Numbered from the stretch's first letter, positions 1 to 9,018 are shown. The stretch: 64,000 nucleotides of DNA from Thermus igniterrae ATCC 700962 (GCF_000376265.1 NZ_AQWU01000073.1:345-64344); one strand, 5' to 3'. Translations and numbers: made by a program. The notes: generated from the sequence alone by a model not told the origin.

Positions 1-267
1 GGCGGTGCCTTAAGCGGGGTCCACCTACGGGCCTACCGGCAGCGCCTCGCGCCGGAGGCCCTCCTGGGCCGGGTGCAGGCGGGGGCGGTGGCCCTTCTCT
101 CCCTGGGGAGCCTCCTCGGCACCCTCCTGGCGGGGGGCTTGGGAACCCTTGGCCCCCGGGTGCCCCTCCTTACCGCCCTCCTGGGCCTCCTTCTCCTCCT
201 GCCCTTGGCCTTGGGGCCCATAGGGTGCGGGCGGCTCCTCGCCTTGAGGGAGGGGAGGTCCCCGTGA
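1..267 (+). CDS. MFS transporter, C-terminal fragment (5' end outside window)
   Basis: The frame is open from the first base to a TGA at 265-267. It encodes very hydrophobic Leu/Gly/Ala-rich segments (LLSLGSLLGTLLAGGLGTLG, then LLTALLGLLLLLPLALGPIG) joined by a short loop. This looks like the last two transmembrane helices of a major facilitator superfamily permease. The tail ends in basic and polar residues, as MFS C-termini do. Its stop overlaps the GTG start of the next MFS gene (GTGA), so the two are probably co-transcribed. The substrate cannot be judged from this fragment, and the family assignment rests on topology only. Confidence 0.55.
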   Translation, partial: GGALSGVHLRAYRQRLAPEALLGRVQAGAVALLSLGSLLGTLLAGGLGTLGPRVPLLTALLGLLLLLPLALGPIGCGRLLALREGRSP

Positions 268-1418
268 GGTTTCCTTTGCATAACGCGCCTCTCTGGGCCG
301 AGGCCCTGAGCGACGTCGGGGCCTCCATTGGCTTTAGTGCCCTCGCCCTGGAAGTAGCCCGCACGGGGGAGGCCTTATGGGTGGGCTTCTTCGCCGCCTT
401 GGGGTACCTCACCCTGGGACCCCTCCTCTTCCTCAGTCCTTGGGTGGAGCGGCAGGGCCTGGCCCGGGCTCTCCTGGAGTTGCGCCTGGCCCGGGGCCTC
501 CTCTTCCTCCCCCTTCCCTTCCTGCCGCGGGAAGCCGCCCTCCTGGTCTTCTACGCTTACCCCCTTATGGTCCTCACCGACCTGGCCCTCGTGGCCTGGG
601 AAGGCCTCCTGGTGCGGAGAGGCCGGGGCAGGCTGGCGGAAAGGAGCGGCAAGCTCTACGCCGCCTGGGAGGTGGGGGGGCTGGTGGGGGTAGGCCTCGG
701 CCCCGCCCTCTTCGCCCTCCATCCCGCCCTCCCTTACCTCCTTGCCGCCGGGATCCTCCTCCTGGCCTGGGCCCTCCTCCGCCCCGCCCTCACGGGGGAG
801 AAGGGGGAGAGGGAGGAGGCGACGAGGCCCGAGGCCTTGGTGCAGTCCCTCCGTCGCCTCCTGGCCCATGCCCCCCTCAGGCCCTATCTCCTTCTTTCCC
901 TCCTCTTTACCCTGGCCCACGCCCTCACCACCGCCCTTCTGGGCCTTCTGGCCCTCCGGGCGGGCACCCCGGAAGCCCTCTTCGGCCTGGTCTTCGCGCT
1001 GCAAAGCCTGGGGTACACCCTGGGAAGCTACTTTGCCGGGCGGGTCCCACCGGCCCTGGCCTTTAGGCTGGGCCCGCTAGGGGCAGCCCTCGGGGGGATG
1101 GGCTTTCTCCTGCCCTTTCCCCTCCTCCTCGCCGCCCCTCCCCTCTTAGGCCTGGCCGTGGCCCTCCTCAGCACCCACCTGCGGGCGGTGCGGGGCTGGC
1201 TCCTGCCCAAGGAGGGCCTGGCCCCAAGTCTCGCCGCCATCCGCGCCCTCCTCTACGGGGCCGGGGCCCTGGGGGGCCTGGGGGCGGGGGTCCTGGGCAA
1301 GTGGAATCCAACCCTGCCCCTCCTCCTAGGAACCTTGGGATTTCTGGTCCTTCTCCCCTTCGCCCTAGGACCCCTGCACCCTAGGCGACTGGAGGCCTTA
1401 AGGCAAGAAGTAGAGTAG
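264..1418 (+). CDS. MFS-type membrane transporter
   Basis: The protein has 384 residues when started at GTG 264. That start overlaps the preceding stop and has a purine-rich Shine-Dalgarno (ggaggggagg) just upstream. An ATG at 225 is in frame but lies inside the previous gene without a better ribosome site. The product is a chain of about 10-12 hydrophobic helices with short basic loops (for example RRGRGRLAERSGK after residue 120), consistent with an MFS exporter. The classical MFS A-motif is not clear. The gene lies upstream of a putative RiPP locus, but a gene fragment and about 250 non-coding bases separate them, so a role in that locus is only a possibility. Confidence 0.6.
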   Translation: MRFPLHNAPLWAEALSDVGASIGFSALALEVARTGEALWVGFFAALGYLTLGPLLFLSPWVERQGLARALLELRLARGLLFLPLPFLPREAALLVFYAYPLMVLTDLALVAWEGLLVRRGRGRLAERSGKLYAAWEVGGLVGVGLGPALFALHPALPYLLAAGILLLAWALLRPALTGEKGEREEATRPEALVQSLRRLLAHAPLRPYLLLSLLFTLAHALTTALLGLLALRAGTPEALFGLVFALQSLGYTLGSYFAGRVPPALAFRLGPLGAALGGMGFLLPFPLLLAAPPLLGLAVALLSTHLRAVRGWLLPKEGLAPSLAAIRALLYGAGALGGLGAGVLGKWNPTLPLLLGTLGFLVLLPFALGPLHPRRLEALRQEVE

Positions 1419-1484
1419 GAATCTTGGACAAGGAAAATCTACCCCTTCTCGTTTTTGGCCCGTTTCCGGCTAACCTGTAGGCGT

Positions 1485-1751
1485 ATGACGCTGGCCCTCC
1501 TCCTCTGGCTGGAAGCCTTCCGCCTCTTCGGGGCGGGGTTCTTCTACTTCGCCCACGCCGCCCTCACCGCTCTTGGGGCCTTGAGCCCCCTAGAGGCGAG
1601 CTCAGCCCTGGCCTTCCGCCTCCTGGCCGAGCCCCTCTTCGCCCTCTACGGGGGGCATCTGGCCGACCGGTGGCCCAGGGGAAGGCTCCTCCTCCTGGCC
1701 GGGGGGCTCCTCCTCGGCTTCGCCTCCTGGGCGGGAAGGGGGTGGCGGTGA
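1485..1751 (+). pseudogene. truncated MFS transporter (N-terminal piece only)
   Basis: This is an 88-residue frame from ATG 1485 to TGA 1751. It holds two or three transmembrane segments and a good MFS loop-2/3 A-motif (GGHLADRWPRGRLLL, around residues 54-68). It then stops where a complete transporter would continue for about 300 more residues. The next 260 bases contain no continuation that I can read. A TAACCT box ends 8 nt before the ATG, so the remnant may still be transcribed. The simplest reading is a deletion or frameshift relic of a third MFS gene, perhaps left by insertion of the neighbouring radical SAM locus. A short functional membrane peptide is less likely. Confidence 0.5.
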
Positions 1752-1893
1752 AGGCAGGCTAGTACGGACACTTAAAGCCCCGGCCCCGGGGGCGGGCAGT
1801 GGGGGGCGAGGCATTGGGGAAGGACCCCAGAGCCCCCGAGGAGGGCGAGGAGAAGCCACAGGAACTGCATGTTTAAAGGCTACCCAGGCTTAC

Positions 1894-1954
1894 GTAACCT
1901 CCGCGTAACGCCCTGGGGTCTTTATGAGAGTCTTCTGAGTTACGCGAGCGTTAC
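1894..1954. promoter_or_regulatory. phased GTAAC / GTTAC half-site array upstream of the radical SAM gene
   Basis: Two GTAAC half-sites start at 1894 and 1905, exactly 11 bp apart. Two inverted copies, GTTAC, start at 1939 and 1950, again exactly 11 bp apart. Direct repeats at one helical turn are typical of OmpR/PhoB-type response regulators and some other tandem-binding activators. Here one tandem pair faces another across about 40 bp. The array ends 55 bp before the ATG of the maturase gene. No regulator gene for it is visible nearby and no clear -35/-10 pair was found in this gap. Confidence 0.4.
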
Positions 1955-2009
1955 CTTCCCCTTGCTACCTTAAGGCCAGCCTGAGGATGGCCGAGAGGGG
2001 TGAAAGGGC

Positions 2010-3440
2010 ATGCAAGACGGGATGTTGCAGCTACTCGTGGTGAACCTCCATGAACCCGCCCAGGCACCAGCCCGGGGAGGGGCAGCCTATAAGCCGAGCC
2101 GCTTCAACCACTTCCACACCCTGCTCACGGGCGAGAAGCTCGCCTTCAACTCCCTCTCCGGTGGCCTGGCCGTCTTGGATTCAGAAGGATGGGCGCGCTA
2201 CACGGCCCTGGTCAAGGGGGAGCCCTTGGACCCCAAGAACCCTGTAGACCAGGGGCTCGTGGAAGGCCGCTTCGTCGTTCCCGAGAACTTTGACGAGCTG
2301 GCCTACCTTAAGACCCTCCACCTGCGGCAGCGCTACACCACGGAGGCCTGGAGCCTAACGATCTGTCCCACCATAGACTGCAACTTCGGCTGCGACTACT
2401 GCTTCCAGCGGCACCGGGTGAGCCGCATGACCGAAGCGGTTCAGGCCAAGCTCCTGGAGGTCTTCGCTCAAAAAGCCCCCCGCCTCAGCAAGTTCTTCGT
2501 CACCTGGTTTGGCGGTGAGCCCACCCTGGCCTGGGATGTCGTCCAGAGGCTATCCCAGGGGTTCTTGGAGGTAGCCGAGAGGAACCGCGTGGAGTACAGC
2601 GCGAGCCTCATCACGAACGGCTACCTCCTGGACGAAGGGAAGGTGGCGGACATGGTCCGCTACCGCATTCACCTGGTCCAGATCACCCTGGACGGGGACG
2701 CTCCCTACCACGACCAGCGCCGCCACCTCCTTACCGGGGAAGGGAGCTTTGAGCGCATCCTGGCCAACCTGCGCCTCTTCCTCGGGAAACCCGTCTTCGT
2801 CCACATCCGGGTCAACGTGGACGTCCGGAACCGCGAGGGCGTGCCCGCCCTCTTGAAGCGTCTGGCCGAGGAAGGGCTGGCCCACCAGGAGAACCTGCGG
2901 GTCTACTTTGCCCCCGTAACCTCCACCGCCCCGCCCAGCCACGGGGTCAAGGGGTTCTGCTTTACCCGCAAGGACTTCGCCCGGATTGAGCCGGAGTACT
3001 TCACCCTTGCGGAAAGCCTAGGCCTGGCCACCCTTCCCTACCCCTCCCTTCAGCTTGGAGGGTGCGTGGCCGCCCATCCGGAGGGGTTCGTGGTGGAGCC
3101 CGACGGCACCCTGCAGAAGTGCTGGGACACGGTGGGGCAGCCCGAGTTCGCCGTGGGCAACCTCCTGGAATACGATCCCCTGCAACTTGCGGAGAACCCC
3201 GTTTACCAGCGCTGGATGTCCTGGGACCCCTTCTCCGAAGAGCTCGCCTGCTCCCGTTGCACCTGGCTTCCTGCGTGCATGGGGGGGTGCCCCTTGAAGG
3301 TGGTCTTCCCCGAGGCCATGCCTGAGGGGAAGGTGGAGCTGGAGTGCACCACCTTCAAGTGGAACTGGAAGCGTACCTTTACTTTGCTAGCCGAACGTGC
3401 AGGCGAGGCAGAGCCGGCACCTCGCCCCTGCACGGGCTAG
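2010..3440 (+). CDS. radical SAM/SPASM peptide maturase
   Basis: The protein has 476 residues. The radical SAM cluster motif CNFGCDYC (Cys124, Cys128, Cys131; CX3CX2C) binds the SAM-cleaving 4Fe-4S cluster and is followed by the GGEPTL-type SAM contact (FGGEPTLAW). The C-terminus carries a full SPASM signature. It has a CX13GX4C pair (Cys352-Cys371), then CX2CX5CX3C (Cys414, 417, 423, 427) and a last Cys446, enough for two auxiliary clusters. The first 110 residues (FNSLSGGLAVLD and around) resemble the N-terminal region of peptide maturases that holds or replaces a PqqD-like leader-binding domain. The gene sits 18 bp before a 34-codon Cys-rich peptide gene and upstream of ABC exporter genes, the classic RiPP arrangement. 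It probably installs thioether (sactipeptide/ranthipeptide) or carbon cross-links. The chemistry is not predictable from sequence. ATG 2010 has a gaggggtgaa ribosome site. Confidence 0.85.
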   Translation: MQDGMLQLLVVNLHEPAQAPARGGAAYKPSRFNHFHTLLTGEKLAFNSLSGGLAVLDSEGWARYTALVKGEPLDPKNPVDQGLVEGRFVVPENFDELAYLKTLHLRQRYTTEAWSLTICPTIDCNFGCDYCFQRHRVSRMTEAVQAKLLEVFAQKAPRLSKFFVTWFGGEPTLAWDVVQRLSQGFLEVAERNRVEYSASLITNGYLLDEGKVADMVRYRIHLVQITLDGDAPYHDQRRHLLTGEGSFERILANLRLFLGKPVFVHIRVNVDVRNREGVPALLKRLAEEGLAHQENLRVYFAPVTSTAPPSHGVKGFCFTRKDFARIEPEYFTLAESLGLATLPYPSLQLGGCVAAHPEGFVVEPDGTLQKCWDTVGQPEFAVGNLLEYDPLQLAENPVYQRWMSWDPFSEELACSRCTWLPACMGGCPLKVVFPEAMPEGKVELECTTFKWNWKRTFTLLAERAGEAEPAPRPCTG

Positions 3441-3458
3441 GGAAAGGAGGTGAGGAAG

Positions 3459-3563
3459 ATGCGGTGGGTCGTGAAGCCTGGACTGCGTATAGCTCCTAGC
3501 GGCGACTGTGGCTACAATTGTGGGCAGAATTCGGGCTGCGGCATCAACACCAAGCTTTGGTAG
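3459..3563 (+). CDS. putative RiPP precursor peptide, 34 aa, three Cys (CX3CX5C)
   Basis: The frame runs from ATG 3459 to TAG 3563 and is preceded by the strongest Shine-Dalgarno of the window (aaaggaggtga, 3444-3454). The first 16 residues (MRWVVKPGLRIAPSGD) are basic and Cys-free, like a short leader. The last 18 are Gly/Asn/Cys-rich with Cys17, Cys21 and Cys27 and end in a tryptophan (CGYNCGQNSGCG, then INTKLW). It lies directly after a radical SAM/SPASM maturase and before an ABC export operon, where a RiPP substrate is expected. Length, composition and position support it. No homolog was recognised and no Gly-Gly or other protease site is obvious. The leader/core border is inference. Confidence 0.7.
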   Translation: MRWVVKPGLRIAPSGDCGYNCGQNSGCGINTKLW

Positions 3564-3579
3564 CTGAGGCCTAGGTAAG

Positions 3580-3627
3580 GAGGCCAAGGTAGCCTGTGCA
3601 GCGAAGAAGTCAAGGCACCTTGGCCTC
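3580..3627 (+). promoter_or_regulatory. RNA hairpin between precursor gene and ABC operon
   Basis: GAGGCCAAGGT-A-GCC (3580-3594) pairs with GGC-ACCTTGGCCTC (3614-3627), giving a 14-bp stem with one bulged A and a loop of about 19 nt. It begins 16 nt after the precursor stop codon. There is no U-run, so it is not a standard terminator. A stem here often protects the 3' end of a highly expressed precursor message and lowers readthrough into the exporter genes. Confidence 0.5.
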
Positions 3628-3645
3628 ATACTCCGGAATAAAGCG

Positions 3646-4401
3646 ATGAGCCGGTTCCAGTGGTTGGCCGAAGTAAGGCTGATGTTGGAGCACTACAGGC
3701 TATATTGGCTCAACTTCCTCTCCGGAATGTTGGCAGATGTATTGTTTTTCTATGCCATCTTAATCGGCTTGAAAAGCGTAACGAAGACATCTCTACCAAA
3801 CATAGACTCAGGCTCTCTGCTGGCCTTATACGGTGTCTTCCAATTCACAGGGGCCCTTTGGCGAACATTTGCTTCGAATATTTTGAACGAGAGCCTGCTT
3901 GGGACCATAGAGCACCTCTCTCTAGCAAGGGGAGGGTTACTTACCCAGCTAACGGTAAGGGCCTTTGTCCTTGGCCTAAACGGGGGGCTGTATGCCGCGG
4001 CGGTGCTCCTGGTGCTCTACTGGGTGAGCGGCATTTCCTTCCAACTCTCTTGGTGGTGGCCGCTTGGTGTGTTGGCCTTCCTTCCAATAAACCTCGGCTT
4101 AGCTTTCCTCATGGGATCCTTGGGACTTCTCTTTAGACGGGTAGATAGCCTTTTTGTTGTGCTCAATTTCATACTGCTCCCCTACTTTCTTTCCCTTACC
4201 CAATGGCACCCCTACATGGCCTACCTCCCCTTCGCCCCAGGGGCCCACCTGGTGCGGCTTGGGCTCACGGGCGGGGAGTTTGACCGGGAGATCTTCCTCC
4301 TGGCCCTCCTCCAGGGCCTCCTCCTCTTCGGGGCGGGCCTTTGGGCCATGGCCTACATGTACCGCCTAGTCCGCAGGCGGGGTATATTGGGGAGGTTCTA
4401 G
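3646..4401 (+). CDS. ABC-2 type permease 1 of 3 (mosaic composition)
   Basis: This 251-residue integral membrane protein has about six hydrophobic segments. It is a paralog of the next two genes: same length, same N-terminal pattern (E-L-L-x-R-Y-W-N/D-x-L) and same C-terminus (AMAYMYRLVRRRGILGRF). ABC-2 permeases pair with a separate ATPase to export lipids, peptides or antibiotics. The gene is chimeric in composition. Roughly the first 550 bp are close to half A+T with codons unusual for this genome, while the last 190 bp are typical Thermus DNA. The last 64 bp differ from permease 2 at only two positions. No strong Shine-Dalgarno precedes ATG 3646. A role in exporting the modified peptide, or in self-immunity, is inferred from position. 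Confidence 0.75.
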   Translation: MSRFQWLAEVRLMLEHYRLYWLNFLSGMLADVLFFYAILIGLKSVTKTSLPNIDSGSLLALYGVFQFTGALWRTFASNILNESLLGTIEHLSLARGGLLTQLTVRAFVLGLNGGLYAAAVLLVLYWVSGISFQLSWWWPLGVLAFLPINLGLAFLMGSLGLLFRRVDSLFVVLNFILLPYFLSLTQWHPYMAYLPFAPGAHLVRLGLTGGEFDREIFLLALLQGLLLFGAGLWAMAYMYRLVRRRGILGRF

Positions 4402-4406
4402 GGGGT

Positions 4407-5162
4407 ATGGTGCTCTGGCCGCTTTGGAGCGAGTTCCTGCTCTCTTGGGCCCGAACCCGGCGTTACTGGTTCAACACGCTGGCAAACCTGGGGGGGAGCC
4501 TCCTCTACTTCTACGCAATCCTTTTGGGCTTTAGCCGGCTTACCCCCGAGGAGGCCCGCTTCTTGGACCCAGGCCCCCTGCTTCTGGTCTTCACGGCCTT
4601 CAACCTCACCTTGTTCACCTTCCAGTCCATCGCCTACACGGTCCAGGGCGAGGCGCAACTGGGGACCCTGGAACACATGGCCCTGGCCCGGGGAGGCCTC
4701 CTGCGCCAGCTCCTCCTCCGGGCCCTGGTGCAAAGCCTATTCGGAGTTCTCTGGAGCCTTTTGGTCCTCCTACCCTTGGCCTTGGCCTTCGGCGTGACCC
4801 TAGGCCCCCTGGCCCGCTGGCCTTTGGGGTTCTTGCCCCTTTTCCTGGCCGCCTTGGGCTTCGGCCTCCTCATGGGGGCCACTGCCTTGTACTTCAAGCA
4901 GGTGGACGAGTTTTTCACCATCGTCCAGTTCCTCTTCCTGCCCTACTTCTTCTACCTGGTCCGGTTTGAGCCCTGGATGGCCCACCTGCCCTTCGCCCCC
5001 GGGGTGCACCTCCTGCGGCTTAGCCTCTCAGGGGCGGAGGCGCCTTGGGGCCTGTTGGGCCTGGCCCTCTTTCAAGGGCTCCTCCTCTTCGCCCTGGGGC
5101 TTTGGGCCATGGCCTACATGTACCGCCTGGTGCGCAGGCGGGGTATATTGGGGAGGTTCTAG
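4407..5162 (+). CDS. ABC-2 type permease 2 of 3
   Basis: The protein has 251 residues from ATG 4407 and is a paralog of the genes on both sides. It has six predicted membrane spans, an amphipathic start (SEFLLSWARTRRYWFNTLANL) and the conserved end MAYMYRLVRRRGILGRF. The ribosome site (ggggagg) lies inside the last codons of permease 1, so translation is probably coupled. It should form, with its neighbours and the downstream ATPase, an ABC exporter. Three different half-size permeases with one ATPase is unusual, because a dimeric exporter needs only one or two. Confidence 0.8.
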   Translation: MVLWPLWSEFLLSWARTRRYWFNTLANLGGSLLYFYAILLGFSRLTPEEARFLDPGPLLLVFTAFNLTLFTFQSIAYTVQGEAQLGTLEHMALARGGLLRQLLLRALVQSLFGVLWSLLVLLPLALAFGVTLGPLARWPLGFLPLFLAALGFGLLMGATALYFKQVDEFFTIVQFLFLPYFFYLVRFEPWMAHLPFAPGVHLLRLSLSGAEAPWGLLGLALFQGLLLFALGLWAMAYMYRLVRRRGILGRF

Positions 5163-5170
5163 GAGGTGTG

Positions 5171-5932
5171 ATGCTCTGCTGGCAACTCTGGAGCGAGTTT
5201 CTCCTGGAGTGGAACCTGACCAGGCGCTACTGGTTTGACACCCTGGCGGGGCTTCTGGCCTCCGTCCTCTTCTTCTACTCCATGGTCCTCGGCCTGGAGA
5301 ACCTGACCCCCGAGGGGCTGGCGAGCCTAGGTCTGGACCTGGGCCCCCTCCTCCTGGTCTTCGCCGCCTTCAACCTGGTGGTGGGCACCTTCCAGTCCAT
5401 CGCCTATTCCGTACAGTCCGAGGCTGCCTTAGGCACCCTGGAGCATCTGGGCCTGGCCCGGGGAGGGCTTCTCCGGCAGCTTCTCCTGCGCGCCCTCGTG
5501 CAGGGTCTCGCCGGCATCACCTTTAGCCTCCTTACCCTTCTTCCCCTGGTTCTCCTCCTCGGGGTTAGGCTCACCCCCGCCTCCTGGTGGCCCCTGGGCC
5601 TTTTGCCCCTGTACCTCGCCGCCTTGGGCTTCGCCCTCGGCATGGGGGCCCTCGCCCTTCACTTCAAGCGGGTGGAGGGCTTCTTCACCATCGTCCAGTT
5701 CCTTTTCCTGCCCTACTTCTTCTCCCTGGTTCGCTTCGCTCCCTGGATGACCCCCCTCCCCTTTGCCCCAGGGACGCAGCTCCTGAAGCTCGCCCTCACC
5801 GGGGAGGGGGCGTTCCCCGGGCTTCTCCTCCTCGCCTTCGTGCAGGCCCTCCTCTTTCTCGGGGCGGGGCTTTTCGCCATGGCCTGGGTCTACGCGGCGG
5901 TGCGGCGGAGGGGCCTATTAGGGAGGTACTGA
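5171..5932 (+). CDS. ABC-2 type permease 3 of 3
   Basis: The protein has 253 residues from ATG 5171; a GTG at 5168 is also possible. An aggaggtg Shine-Dalgarno lies directly upstream, formed partly by the end of permease 2. Like its paralogs it begins with LWSEFLLEWNLTRRYWFDTL, has about six membrane helices and ends in AVRRRGLLGRY. Its stop overlaps the ATPase start (TGATG). It is most similar to permease 2 by eye, which suggests a tandem duplication. The substrate is unknown. Confidence 0.8.
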   Translation: MLCWQLWSEFLLEWNLTRRYWFDTLAGLLASVLFFYSMVLGLENLTPEGLASLGLDLGPLLLVFAAFNLVVGTFQSIAYSVQSEAALGTLEHLGLARGGLLRQLLLRALVQGLAGITFSLLTLLPLVLLLGVRLTPASWWPLGLLPLYLAALGFALGMGALALHFKRVEGFFTIVQFLFLPYFFSLVRFAPWMTPLPFAPGTQLLKLALTGEGAFPGLLLLAFVQALLFLGAGLFAMAWVYAAVRRRGLLGRY

Positions 5933-6843
5933 TGCGGCTTTTGGTGCAGAACGTCCACAAGCGCTTCGGCAAGCTGGAGGCCCTCAAGGGGGTGAGCCTG
6001 GAGCTTGGGGCCGGGGAGATCCTGGGCCTTTTGGGCCCCAACGGGGCGGGCAAGACCACCCTCATCAAGGTCGTCCTCGGCCTCCTCCTGCCCGACGCGG
6101 GAGAGGTGGTCCTGGAGGAGGGCGGGGCGCGGCGCAGGCCCCAGGGCCACGAGTTCGGCGTCCTCCTGGAGGGAAGCCGCAACCTCTACGTCAACCTGAG
6201 CCTCCTGGTGAACGCCCTCTACTTCGGGGGCATCCGGGGGCTTCCCCCCAGGGAGGTCCGCCCCCGGTTTGAGGCCTGGCTGGAGCGCTTCGGCCTAAGG
6301 GACCGCCTCCACGCCCCCCTCGCCTCCCTCTCCCGGGGCATGCAGCAGAAGGCGGCCTTGGCCCTCGCCCTCGCCCTCAAGCCCCGCTTCCTCCTTCTGG
6401 ACGAGCCCACCCTGGGCCTGGACCCCGTGAGCCGGAGGGAGTTTGAGGGGATCCTCCTGGAGCTTAAGAAGGAGGGCTGGGGCATCCTCCTCACCTCCCA
6501 CGACCTGGAGGTGGTGGAGCGGGTGAGCGACCGCGTGGCCTTCCTCCACCGGGGGGAGGTGCGGCGGCAGGGCCCCACCCGGGCCCTCCTCCGGGACTGG
6601 GCCGGGGAGGGGTACCGGGTGCGCCTCGCCGAGCCCAAGGCGGAGGCCCTCCTCAAGGCCCTGGGCCCCGGCTGGAGTGCGGAAGGCCCCGAGGTCCTCT
6701 TCTTCCTGGGGCCGTGGGAGGCGCTGCGGGAGGTCTTGGGAACCCTCCCCGTGGAAGTGTTGGAGGTCTCCCGGGGGACGCCGAGCCTCGAGGCCCTCTT
6801 CCTCCACCTCTTCGGGGAGGCCCGCCCTTCCCCCAGCGCATAA
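5932..6843 (+). CDS. ABC transporter ATP-binding protein (exporter ATPase)
   Basis: This 303-residue cytoplasmic ATPase energises the three upstream permeases. Motifs in order: Walker A GPNGAGKTT (residues 33-41), a Q-loop region with EGSRNLY, signature LSRGMQQK (a variant of LSGGQ seen in DrrA/CcmA-like exporters), Walker B FLLLDEPTLGLD, and H-loop LTSHD. The last 80 residues form the regulatory tail usual in ABC-2 exporter ATPases. It overlaps permease 3 by one base (TGATG), so it is translationally coupled. It is the last gene of the putative RiPP unit; the next gene has its own promoter-like box. Confidence 0.9.
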   Translation: MRLLVQNVHKRFGKLEALKGVSLELGAGEILGLLGPNGAGKTTLIKVVLGLLLPDAGEVVLEEGGARRRPQGHEFGVLLEGSRNLYVNLSLLVNALYFGGIRGLPPREVRPRFEAWLERFGLRDRLHAPLASLSRGMQQKAALALALALKPRFLLLDEPTLGLDPVSRREFEGILLELKKEGWGILLTSHDLEVVERVSDRVAFLHRGEVRRQGPTRALLRDWAGEGYRVRLAEPKAEALLKALGPGWSAEGPEVLFFLGPWEALREVLGTLPVEVLEVSRGTPSLEALFLHLFGEARPSPSA

Positions 6844-6863
6844 CTTTGCGCTACCCTATCCCC

Positions 6864-8009
6864 ATGCGCCTCCACCCCCGCACCGAGGCGGCCAAGGAGA
6901 GCATCTTCCCCAGGATGAGCCAGCTCGCCCAGCGCCTTGGGGCGGTAAACCTGGGCCAGGGCTTTCCCTCCAACCCTCCTCCGGCCTTTCTCCTCGAGGC
7001 GGTGCGGCGGGCCCTGGGCCGCTACGACCAGTACGCTCCCCCCGCCGGGTTTCCCCCCTTGCGGGAGGCCCTAGCCGAGGAGTTCGGGGTGGAGCCGGAG
7101 GCGGTGGTGGTGACCTCAGGGGCCACGGAGGCCCTCTATGTCCTCCTCCAGAGCCTCCTGGGTCCAGGGGAGGAGGTGGTGGTCCTGGAGCCCTTCTTTG
7201 ACGTGTACCTGCCCGACGCCTTCCTGGCCGGGGCCGAGGCCCGGCTGGTGCGCCTTGGGCTTACCCAGGAGGGCTTCCGCCTGGACCTCAAGGCCCTGGA
7301 AGAGGCCGTCACCCCCCGCACCCGGGCCCTCCTCCTCAACGCCCCCATGAACCCCACGGGCCTGGTGTTCGGCGAGGAGGAGCTTCGGGCCGTGGCCGAG
7401 CTGGCCCGGAGGCACGACCTCTTCCTGGTCTCCGACGAGGTCTACGACGAGCTCTACTACGGGGAAAGGCCCAGGCGCCTGCGGGACTTTGCCCCGGAGC
7501 GCACCTTCACCGTGGGGAGTGCCGGCAAGCGCCTCGAGGCCACCGGCTACCGGGTGGGCTGGATTGTGGGCCCCAAGGCCTTCATGCCCACCCTGGCGGG
7601 GATGCGCCAGTGGACCAGCTTTTCCGCCCCCACCCCCCTGCAGGCGGGGGTGGCGGAGGCCCTGCGGGTGGCGCGGCGGGAGGGGTTTTACCAGGCCCTG
7701 CGGGAGAGCTACCGGAGGCGGCGGGACCTCCTCCTGGAGGGGCTTCGGGCCCTGGGGCTTCGGGCCTATATGCCCCAGGGCACCTACTTCCTCATGGCCG
7801 AGCTTCCCGGCTGGGAGGCCTTTGCCCTGGTGGAGGAGGCCCGGGTGGCCCTCATCCCCGCCTCCGCCTTTTACCGCCAAGACCCCCCCGAGGGGCTTTT
7901 CCGCTTCGCCTTCTGCAAGAGCGAGGAGGAGCTCACCCTGGCCCTGGAGCGCCTGGCCCTTGTGGTAAACTCCCCCCGTGAAGCTCAAAGTGGTGGAGTA
8001 CCTGAGTAA
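6864..8009 (+). CDS. class I PLP aminotransferase (kynurenine/glutamine/methionine transaminase type)
   Basis: The protein has 381 residues from ATG 6864. The PLP lysine is in SAGKRLEATGYRVGW, and the upstream signatures are NLGQGFPSNPPP, ATEALY, NAPMNPTG and SDEVYDELYY. This pattern is that of subgroup I-alpha aminotransferases such as KAT/YbdL, which transaminate bulky or sulfur amino acids. A TACCCT box (6852-6857) lies 6 nt before the ATG, pointing to a leaderless transcript separate from the ABC genes. The 3' end overlaps the next gene by 32 bp and contains that gene's promoter box. Exact substrate is not assigned. Confidence 0.85.
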   Translation: MRLHPRTEAAKESIFPRMSQLAQRLGAVNLGQGFPSNPPPAFLLEAVRRALGRYDQYAPPAGFPPLREALAEEFGVEPEAVVVTSGATEALYVLLQSLLGPGEEVVVLEPFFDVYLPDAFLAGAEARLVRLGLTQEGFRLDLKALEEAVTPRTRALLLNAPMNPTGLVFGEEELRAVAELARRHDLFLVSDEVYDELYYGERPRRLRDFAPERTFTVGSAGKRLEATGYRVGWIVGPKAFMPTLAGMRQWTSFSAPTPLQAGVAEALRVARREGFYQALRESYRRRRDLLLEGLRALGLRAYMPQGTYFLMAELPGWEAFALVEEARVALIPASAFYRQDPPEGLFRFAFCKSEEELTLALERLALVVNSPREAQSGGVPE

Positions 8010-9018
8010 GGGGGAGTTTCCGCTAGGCGAGGCGGAGGCCCTCTCCCTCTACCGGGCCATGCGGCGGGCCCGGTTTTTTGACGAGAAGGCCCTCACCCTG
8101 CAGCGCCAGGGGCGGCTTGGGGTCTACGCCCCCTTCATGGGCCAGGAGGCCGCCCAGGTGGGGCTGGCCCTGGCCCTGGGGCCGGGGGACTGGGTGGTGC
8201 CCAGCTACCGGGAGTCCGCCCTGCTCCTGGCCCGGGGGCTTCCCATCCACACCCTCATCCTCTACTGGCGGGCCCATCCCGCGGGCTGGCGCTTCCCCGA
8301 GGGGGTCAGGGCGGTGAACCCCTACATCCCCATCGCCACCCAGATCCCCCAGGCGGTGGGCCTCGCCCTGGCCGGGCGGTACCGGGGGGAGAACTGGGTG
8401 GTGGCCACCTCCATCGGGGACGGGGGGACGAGCGAGGGGGACTTCCACGAGGGGCTGAACTTCGCCGCGGTCTTCGGCGCCCCCGTGGTCTTCCTGGTGC
8501 AGAACAACGGCTACGCCATCAGCGTTCCCCGGTCCAAGCAGATGCGGGTGGACTACATCGCCCGGCGCGCCGAGGGGTACGGGATGCCCGGGGTGGTGGT
8601 GGACGGGAACGACGTCTTTGCCGTCTACCTGGAGGCCAAAAAGGCCGTGGAGCGGGCCCGTAAGGGGGAGGGGCCCACCCTGCTGGAGGCCCTCACCTAC
8701 CGCCTGGCCCCCCACACCACCTCCGACGACCCCACCCGCTACCGCACCCGGGAGGAGGAGGAGGCCTGGCGGCAGAAGGACCCCCTCCTGCGCCTGCGCC
8801 AGGCCCTGGAGGCCAGGGGGCTTTGGGGGGAAGGGGAGGAGGCCGCCCTTTTGGCGGAGCTGGAGGAGGAGTTCGCCCGGGAGCTGGCCCTGGCGGACGG
8901 CGCCCCCGAGCCCCGTCCGGAGGAGATCGTGGAGCACGTGTACCGGGAGATGGGTCCGGATCAGCGCCGGGCCTGGGAGGCCCTGAGGCGGGGCCTCCAC
9001 CTGGAGGAGGTATGGTAG
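7978..9018 (+). CDS. 2-oxoacid (pyruvate-type) dehydrogenase E1 component, alpha subunit
   Basis: The protein has 346 residues starting at GTG 7978. It binds thiamine diphosphate and, with the beta subunit, decarboxylates a 2-oxo acid and passes the acyl group to an E2 lipoyl domain. The ThDP motif is seen as [17 protein letters not shown] through VQNNGYAIS. The phosphorylation-loop-like region [17 protein letters not shown] is conserved. A TAAACT -10 box at 7966-7971, inside the end of the aminotransferase gene, is exactly 6 nt before the GTG. No E2 or E3 genes adjoin the pair, so the partner must be encoded elsewhere. It could serve pyruvate or branched-chain substrates. Confidence 0.88.

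What the first reader, a model, noticed from the sequence alone, without database searches (positions are those of the whole stretch)
2010..6843. Putative new RiPP locus: radical SAM/SPASM maturase, 34-aa Cys peptide, three ABC-2 permeases and an ATPase
Sequence shows a complete SPASM maturase (CX3CX2C plus CX13GX4C and CX2CX5CX3C). It is followed at once by a short peptide gene with a perfect ribosome site and then by four coupled transporter genes. Maturase, Cys-rich peptide and ABC exporter in one direction is the established layout of sactipeptide, ranthipeptide and related RiPP systems (SKF is a comparison). I do not recognise this peptide or the triple-permease design. The product could be a thermostable cross-linked peptide with antimicrobial or signalling use.
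Basis: partly seen in the sequence, partly recalled or inferred. Interest (0 to 1): 0.88.

Follow-up and report, generated by a model that had tools for sequence, protein, structure and literature searches.

The report
Thermus peptide locus with stacked permeases
Heat-loving Thermus bacteria carry a gene cluster that appears to make a small chemically cross-linked peptide and, in this genome, keeps three membrane pumps of which each seems matched to a different version of that peptide, as if the cell held on to protection against peptides it no longer makes.

Summary
In detail: an intact radical SAM/SPASM maturase (2010-3440), a 34-aa Cys peptide (3459-3563), three ABC-2-fold permeases and one ATPase, all on the + strand. 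The peptide is a genuine precursor: its RBS and leader occur exactly once in each of 12 of 27 Thermus genomes, always at this locus, and the leader is under strong purifying selection. The maturase lies between NCBIfam TIGR04463, Clo7bot and CefB and passes no cut-off; the leader M[RK][WYF][VI]xKP resembles theirs.

The triple permease is not a design. Elsewhere one permease plus the ATPase suffices. The core comes in at least five types, and each type sits in front of its own permease type (A with P1, C with P2, B with P3). Core similarity follows permease similarity (Mantel r 0.87-0.94) but not ATPase or maturase similarity. Window and G004 are 99.4% identical up to the leader; the window then has a different core plus P1 in front of the same P2-P3. 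Several genomes have lost the maturase but keep permease and ATPase.

Best reading: a RiPP, probably bacteriocin-like, with swappable core-permease cassettes and accumulated (stacked) immunity permeases. Immunity and cross-link chemistry are inferred, not shown.

The parts
1860..1976 (+). conserved promoter/leader block upstream of the maturase (TTTATGAGA...TGAGTTACG...GTTACCTTCC)
   Evidence: Same block upstream of the locus in G006, G016, G018, G020, G009, G023 and T. scotoductus, also where the maturase is lost; second 84% copy in own genome. Promoter function inferred; no sigma-70 match.
2010..3440 (+). radical SAM/SPASM RiPP maturase, 476 aa
   Evidence: PF04055 2.5e-15; TIGR04463 4.7e-110 (368 bits, cut-off 525), TIGR04334 Clo7bot 6.4e-77 (cut-off not met); Cys motifs invariant
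3459..3563 (+). type A precursor peptide, 34 aa: leader MRWVVKPGLRI, core with CX3CX5C
   Evidence: RBS AAAGGAGGTGAGG; leader pattern unique to this locus in 12 Thermus genomes; dN/dS low; T. composti orthologue
3580..3628 (+). RNA hairpin between precursor and first permease (GGAGGCCAAGGU...ACCUUGGCCUC)
   Evidence: MFE -37.4 kcal/mol, z -4.06; a hairpin of unrelated sequence lies at the same place in the other types, z -1.9 to -3.7. Attenuator/RNA-stability role inferred.
3480..4400 (+). exchangeable cassette: core A plus permease P1
   Evidence: Window and G004 99.4% identical over 1690-3479 and about 92% over 4411-8989; between them only core, hairpin and P1 differ
3646..4401 (+). permease P1 (ABC-2 fold), 251 aa, cognate of type A peptide
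   Evidence: AlphaFold model pLDDT 79.8; Foldseek Wzm 9qfx E 5.6e-4, TM 0.65; P1 stands behind type A in window and T. composti; first 555 bp GC 51%
4407..5162 (+). permease P2, 251 aa, cognate of type C peptide (whose precursor is absent here)
   Evidence: Directly behind type C precursor in G004, G006, G016, G024, G026
5171..5932 (+). permease P3, 253 aa, cognate of type B peptide (whose precursor is absent here)
   Evidence: Directly behind type B precursor in T. altitudinis/G002, G021, G025, Thermaceae MAG, T. thermophilus plasmids
5932..6843 (+). shared ABC ATPase, 303 aa (DrrA/BcrA-like)
   Evidence: PF00005 4.6e-27; TIGR01188 1.5e-47 below cut-off; present in every locus that has a permease

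Best explanation
The locus makes a small ribosomal peptide that a radical SAM/SPASM enzyme cross-links at cysteines. The enzyme recognises the constant leader M[RK]W[VI]V[KR]P, so the core behind it can vary. Each core type is paired with its own ABC-2 permease, which, driven by the one constant ATPase, removes the mature peptide from the membrane (self-immunity, perhaps also export). New core-permease cassettes enter by recombination between the conserved maturase end/leader and the permease genes. When a new cassette replaces an old core, the old permease is kept, so the window carries peptide A with P1 (own immunity) plus P2 and P3 (immunity to the type C and B peptides of relatives). Shown: the genes, leader conservation, core-permease pairing, cassette swap, and maturase loss with transporter retention. 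Inferred: cross-linking, leader recognition, bacteriocin activity, immunity, order of events.
For: Pairing: type A with P1 in 2 of 2 loci, B with P3 in 5 of 5, C with P2 in 5 of 5 (G026 as a P2-P3 chimera), D with its own type in 2 of 2. Core similarity tracks permease similarity (9 loci r 0.91, p 2e-4; 8 non-duplicate loci r 0.87, p 0.002) but not ATPase (r 0.09, p 0.33) or maturase (5 loci, r 0.006). The permease C-terminal third tracks less (r 0.49), as expected if recombination happens there; the last 60 nt of P1 and P2 match at 58 of 60. Cassette swap between window and G004 with near-identical left flank. P1 and the peptide have lower GC than the window. Maturase broken or gone while permease and ATPase stay open in T. 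composti (in-frame TAG), T. thermophilus TF24-type plasmids (IS), T. scotoductus DSM 8553 (deletion), G006, G018, G009, G025-C6 and G023; no intact maturase was seen without permease and ATPase. Fold of P1 is ABC-2 and matches include PmtCD, which with PmtAB is reported to secrete and give self-resistance to PSM peptides (PMC7927808).
Against: No peptide, cross-link or killing has been measured. Retained permeases could be neutral remnants or transport something else; in G016, G008 and G020 permeases are broken too. The loci are related by descent and by recent transfer, so the pairing counts are not independent. The direction (stacking rather than loss from a longer array) is inferred from the nested gene order only. 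No leader protease was found. Some precursors are kept intact where the maturase is gone (G006, G026), which immunity alone does not explain.
Confidence: 0.68

Rival explanations
1. The permeases and ATPase are only the exporter of the peptide (signal or metallophore-like), the permease being core-specific because it must recognise its cargo; extra permeases are harmless leftovers.
For: Core-specific permease pairing also fits cargo recognition; no other exporter lies in the operon.
Against: Permease and ATPase stay open in at least eight loci where the maturase is gone or broken and no finished product would be exported; P2 and P3 in the window are intact although their peptides are absent.
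Confidence: 0.22
2. The three permeases form one hetero-oligomeric transporter with the ATPase, a dedicated triple-permease design.
For: They are adjacent, translationally close and share one ATPase.
Against: T. composti, T. altitudinis, the Thermaceae MAG and G026 have one permease plus the ATPase; P1, P2-type and P3 each occur as the only permease. ABC-2 exporters usually work as two permease and two ATPase subunits (established knowledge).
Confidence: 0.04
3. The tandem permeases arose by local duplication and dosage, unrelated to peptide type.
For: All are homologous; P2 and P3 are 67% identical.
Against: P1 is 44-46% identical to P2 and P3, of lower GC, and 77% identical to the T. composti permease that follows the same peptide type; core and permease co-vary.
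Confidence: 0.06

Closest known systems
TIGR04463 family radical SAM/SPASM RiPP maturases with CefA (Cys-every-fifth) precursors
   Same: Best-scoring maturase family (368 bits); precursors in Deinobacterium-like G027, Methanothrix and Methylomagnum begin M[KEQR][WY][IL]V[NSQ]P like the Thermus leader
   Different: Below the family cut-off of 525; those precursors are long with a Cys at every fifth residue, and their neighbours are different transporters or enzymes
Clo7bot (TIGR04334 maturase CtpM, TIGR04333 Cys-rich peptides)
   Same: Second-best maturase family (259 bits); short precursors with leader MKFIKKP and a core that can hold CGTNSGC, compare CGSNSGC/CGQNSGC in Thermus; Thermus type D gives a weak TIGR04333 match over the leader (E 0.097)
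   Different: Cut-offs (600 and 31 bits) not met; the Clo7bot locus read here carries many precursors in front of the maturase, Thermus one precursor behind it with a core-specific permease
ABC-transporter self-immunity of bacteriocins (PmtAB/PmtCD, LugEFGH, Mr10EFGH; SkfEF and LanFEG from general knowledge)
   Same: ATPase plus ABC-2 permease next to a membrane-acting peptide; orphan occurrence, cross-immunity and modular exchange are reported for Mr10EFGH (PMC10598978) and self-resistance for Lug/Pmt (PMC7927808)
   Different: Here one constant ATPase serves several stacked permeases of which each matches another core type
Colicin/pneumococcal bacteriocin loci with extra immunity genes (from memory)
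   Same: Works like them: swappable toxin-immunity pairs and immunity genes without their toxin
   Different: Those use unmodified proteins/peptides and small immunity proteins, not a RiPP maturase and ABC permeases

Membership tests
Radical SAM/SPASM peptide maturase | CX3CX2C radical SAM motif and Cys-rich SPASM domain | tested here: met
   PF04055 2.5e-15, TIGR04085 1.3e-14; C124/128/131 and C352, 371, 414, 417, 423, 427 conserved
TIGR04463 maturase family | Score above the curated cut-off (525 bits) | tested here: not met
   368 bits; no Deinococcota genome of 111 reaches the cut-off
TIGR04463 maturase family | Partner precursor of the CefA type | tested here: not met
   No NF038108 match for any Thermus precursor, whereas the G027 precursors match
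Clo7bot system | Maturase above TIGR04334 cut-off and precursor above TIGR04333 cut-off | tested here: not met
   259 of 600 bits; type D precursor 12.5 of 31 bits, others no match
Anaerobic sulfatase maturase | TIGR03942 cut-off and a sulfatase substrate | tested here: not met
   92 of 349 bits; neighbour is a short precursor
Sactipeptide or ranthipeptide | Cys thioether to an alpha (sacti) or beta/gamma (ranthi) carbon | not testable with these tools
   Needs mass spectrometry/NMR of the product
RiPP | Genetically linked precursor with conserved leader and variable core next to a maturase | tested here: met
   Leader conserved, five core types
ABC-2 exporter/self-immunity transporter | ABC-2 permease fold plus ATPase | tested here: met
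   Foldseek Wzm, KpsM, TarG and PmtCD hits (TM 0.5-0.65, E 6e-4 to 0.1); ATPase PF00005
ABC-2 exporter/self-immunity transporter | Confers resistance to the linked peptide | not testable with these tools
   Only indirect: transporter kept where the maturase is lost

The most novel reading that the evidence does not exclude
The locus is a growing immunity record: a constant maturase and leader on one side and a constant ATPase on the other, between which new core-permease cassettes are inserted next to the leader while older permeases are pushed downstream and kept, so that the order of permeases records past peptide types and one ATPase powers immunity to all of them.
Probability: 0.4. Interest if true: 0.75.

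Novelty: new variant of a known kind. Interest (0 to 1): 0.62.

Why it matters
It gives a small family of precursors in a fully thermophilic genus with natural sequence variants, each tied to one permease. That makes two open matters testable in a genetically tractable host (T. thermophilus): how a SPASM maturase tolerates very different cores behind one leader, and how an ABC-2 immunity permease recognises its peptide (natural chimeras such as the P2-P3 fusion in G026 already narrow the region). Stacked, toxin-less permeases would be a readable record of past bacteriocin competition in hot springs. None of the Thermus precursors is recognised by NCBIfam at its cut-offs.

Tried and rejected
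Dedicated triple-permease transporter: rejected, single-permease loci exist. Sulfatase maturase: rejected. Phage cargo: no relative in viral contigs. The second maturase in the same genome (G000:C50) as a helper: rejected, it is frameshifted with stops and sits at a contig end. Permease homologues in G037, G038, G040 and G041-C83 have the order ATPase then permease and no leader peptide, so they are another system. AlphaFold of the maturase was poor (pLDDT 63 with five sequences), so no fold search was made with it and an RRE domain was not shown. No sequence match of the permeases to solved structures. Literature searches for Clo7bot, TIGR04463, Cys-every-fifth, and Thermus with RiPP, sactipeptide or bacteriocin gave no paper whose title or abstract describes this locus. 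A first Mantel test with the T. composti maturase out of frame was redone.

Full report
What is there.

The peptide is a gene, not a chance ORF. T. composti has the same peptide at 74% identity behind a 71% identical maturase. Between the two, codon changes in the leader are synonymous in 4 of 5 cases, and all three Cys codons are kept, two of them through TGT to TGC changes. A DNA pattern for RBS plus leader occurs exactly once in each of 12 of 27 Thermus species genomes, always at this locus, and never in the reversed control.

Leader constant, core variable. Behind maturases that are 98-100% identical stand different cores: type A (window), type B MRWIVRPSRVQPLGDPGCGGRRPCPTKNPPVLT (T. altitudinis, G021, G025, T. 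thermophilus plasmids; MAG variant MKWVVKPSRAVQPMGECGARRPCPTKYPPVLT), type C MRWIVKPSRVQPLGDPGCGGRMPAPCPQR (G004, G006, G016, G024, G026). Further types stand at loci without an intact maturase: D MRYIVKPTRSAEPLGCGIFICGSNSGPK (G023) and E MRWVRKPSRTSSVNCIIKCIGNCGKNNVEVDE (G020). A hairpin of type-specific sequence lies between precursor and first permease in all types.

Each core has its permease. Type A is followed by P1 (2 of 2), B by P3 (5 of 5), C by P2 (5 of 5, in G026 as a P2-P3 chimera) and D by a further type (2 of 2). Quantitatively, core similarity follows permease similarity (r 0.91 with nine loci, p 2e-4; r 0.87, p 0.002 with eight after removing a duplicate) and not ATPase similarity (r 0.09). 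For the five loci with a maturase, core against maturase gives r 0.006 and core against permease 0.94. The tie is weakest in the last third of the permease (r 0.49), where P1 and P2 of the window share 58 of their last 60 nt although T. composti P1 shares only 50 of 60 with window P1. These loci are not independent, so the p values are a guide only.

The cassette swap. Window and G004 (another Thermus species) are 99.4% identical over 1690-3479, ending inside the leader codons, and about 92% identical from 4411 on. Between these points G004 has core C and goes straight into P2-P3-ATPase; the window has core A and P1, then the same P2-P3-ATPase. P1 and core A have lower GC (P1 first 555 bp 51%) than the window (68%), as does P1 of T. 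composti. The simplest account is that a core A-P1 cassette replaced core C and left P2 in place. In the same way G004 differs from the B-P3 loci by core C-P2. The direction is an inference from the nested order; loss from a longer array is not excluded.

Transporter kept, maturase lost. In T. composti the maturase has an in-frame TAG in the SPASM domain; in the T. thermophilus TF24-type plasmids it is cut by a transposase gene; in T. scotoductus DSM 8553 a deletion removes the maturase from about codon 185, the precursor and any P1; in G018, G009, G025-C6 and G023 only traces or nothing remain; in G006, G016, G020 and G026 it is replaced by an unrelated 322-aa lipoprotein-like ORF up to its last 15 codons. 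In most of these permease and ATPase remain open (in G016, G020 and G008 the permease is broken), and no intact maturase was seen without them. This asymmetry is what immunity predicts and pure export does not.

What it works like. The P1 model has the ABC-2 fold (Wzm, KpsM, TarG, PmtCD among the matches). PmtAB/PmtCD and LugEFGH are described as secreting and giving self-resistance to membrane-active peptides (PMC7927808), and ABC immunity modules that occur as orphans and with different bacteriocins are described for enterocins (PMC10598978). I therefore commit to a bacteriocin-like RiPP with permease-based immunity, at 0.68; a pure exporter is the main rival at 0.22.

Where it belongs. The maturase scores 368 bits for TIGR04463 (cut-off 525), 259 for Clo7bot TIGR04334 (600) and 192 for CefB (600), so it is filed in none. 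The leader is shared with their precursors: MKFIKKP and MRYIIKS in Paraclostridium Clo7bot, MKWIVNP/MEWIVSP in G027, MRYIVQP in Methanothrix, MQYLVQP in Methylomagnum. The Clo7bot peptide MKFIKKPVKKFEEAYCYTSCTSYCGTNSGCVDYRDGNYMFY even shares the CGxNSGCV stretch with T. composti. So this is a new variant within that wider group of leader-guided SPASM systems, unrecognised by NCBIfam. The cross-link type cannot be told from sequence.

Noticed in passing
G000:C50:32247-33577 (L002, L003, L010): A second, 55-74% identical maturase in the same genome, frameshifted and ending at a contig end, downstream of a gene whose end resembles the BTAD-like regulator end seen beside other copies.
   Followed up: partly
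window 1860-1976; G000:C10:1824-1940 (L116); L080 1439 and 6988: The promoter-like block of the maturase operon is repeated elsewhere: in the own genome in front of an MFS-like gene next to a regulator-like gene, in G016 twice. It may serve a common regulator and as a recombination site.
   Followed up: partly
L071 2161-3129, L080 7058-8026, L081 1418-2384, L079 7709-8269: A 322-aa lipoprotein-like, Cys/Ser/Tyr-rich ORF without Pfam match (broken in L081 and L079) replaces the maturase up to its last 15 codons in several Thermus genomes, keeping the precursor intact.
   Followed up: partly
L008 2116-4728: Methanothrix MAG: TIGR04463-like maturase followed by an 870-aa ORF with leader MRYIVQP and a long Cys-every-fifth C-terminus, an archaeal CefA-like case.
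   Followed up: no
L084 8569-9085: Deinobacterium-like genome G027: two CefA-like precursors with leaders MEWIVSP and MKWIVNP behind a 51% identical maturase and in front of a fused ABC transporter.
   Followed up: partly
window 225-1751: An MFS-like gene followed by a truncated second MFS-like ORF directly upstream of the locus; G004 and others carry a longer copy.
   Followed up: no
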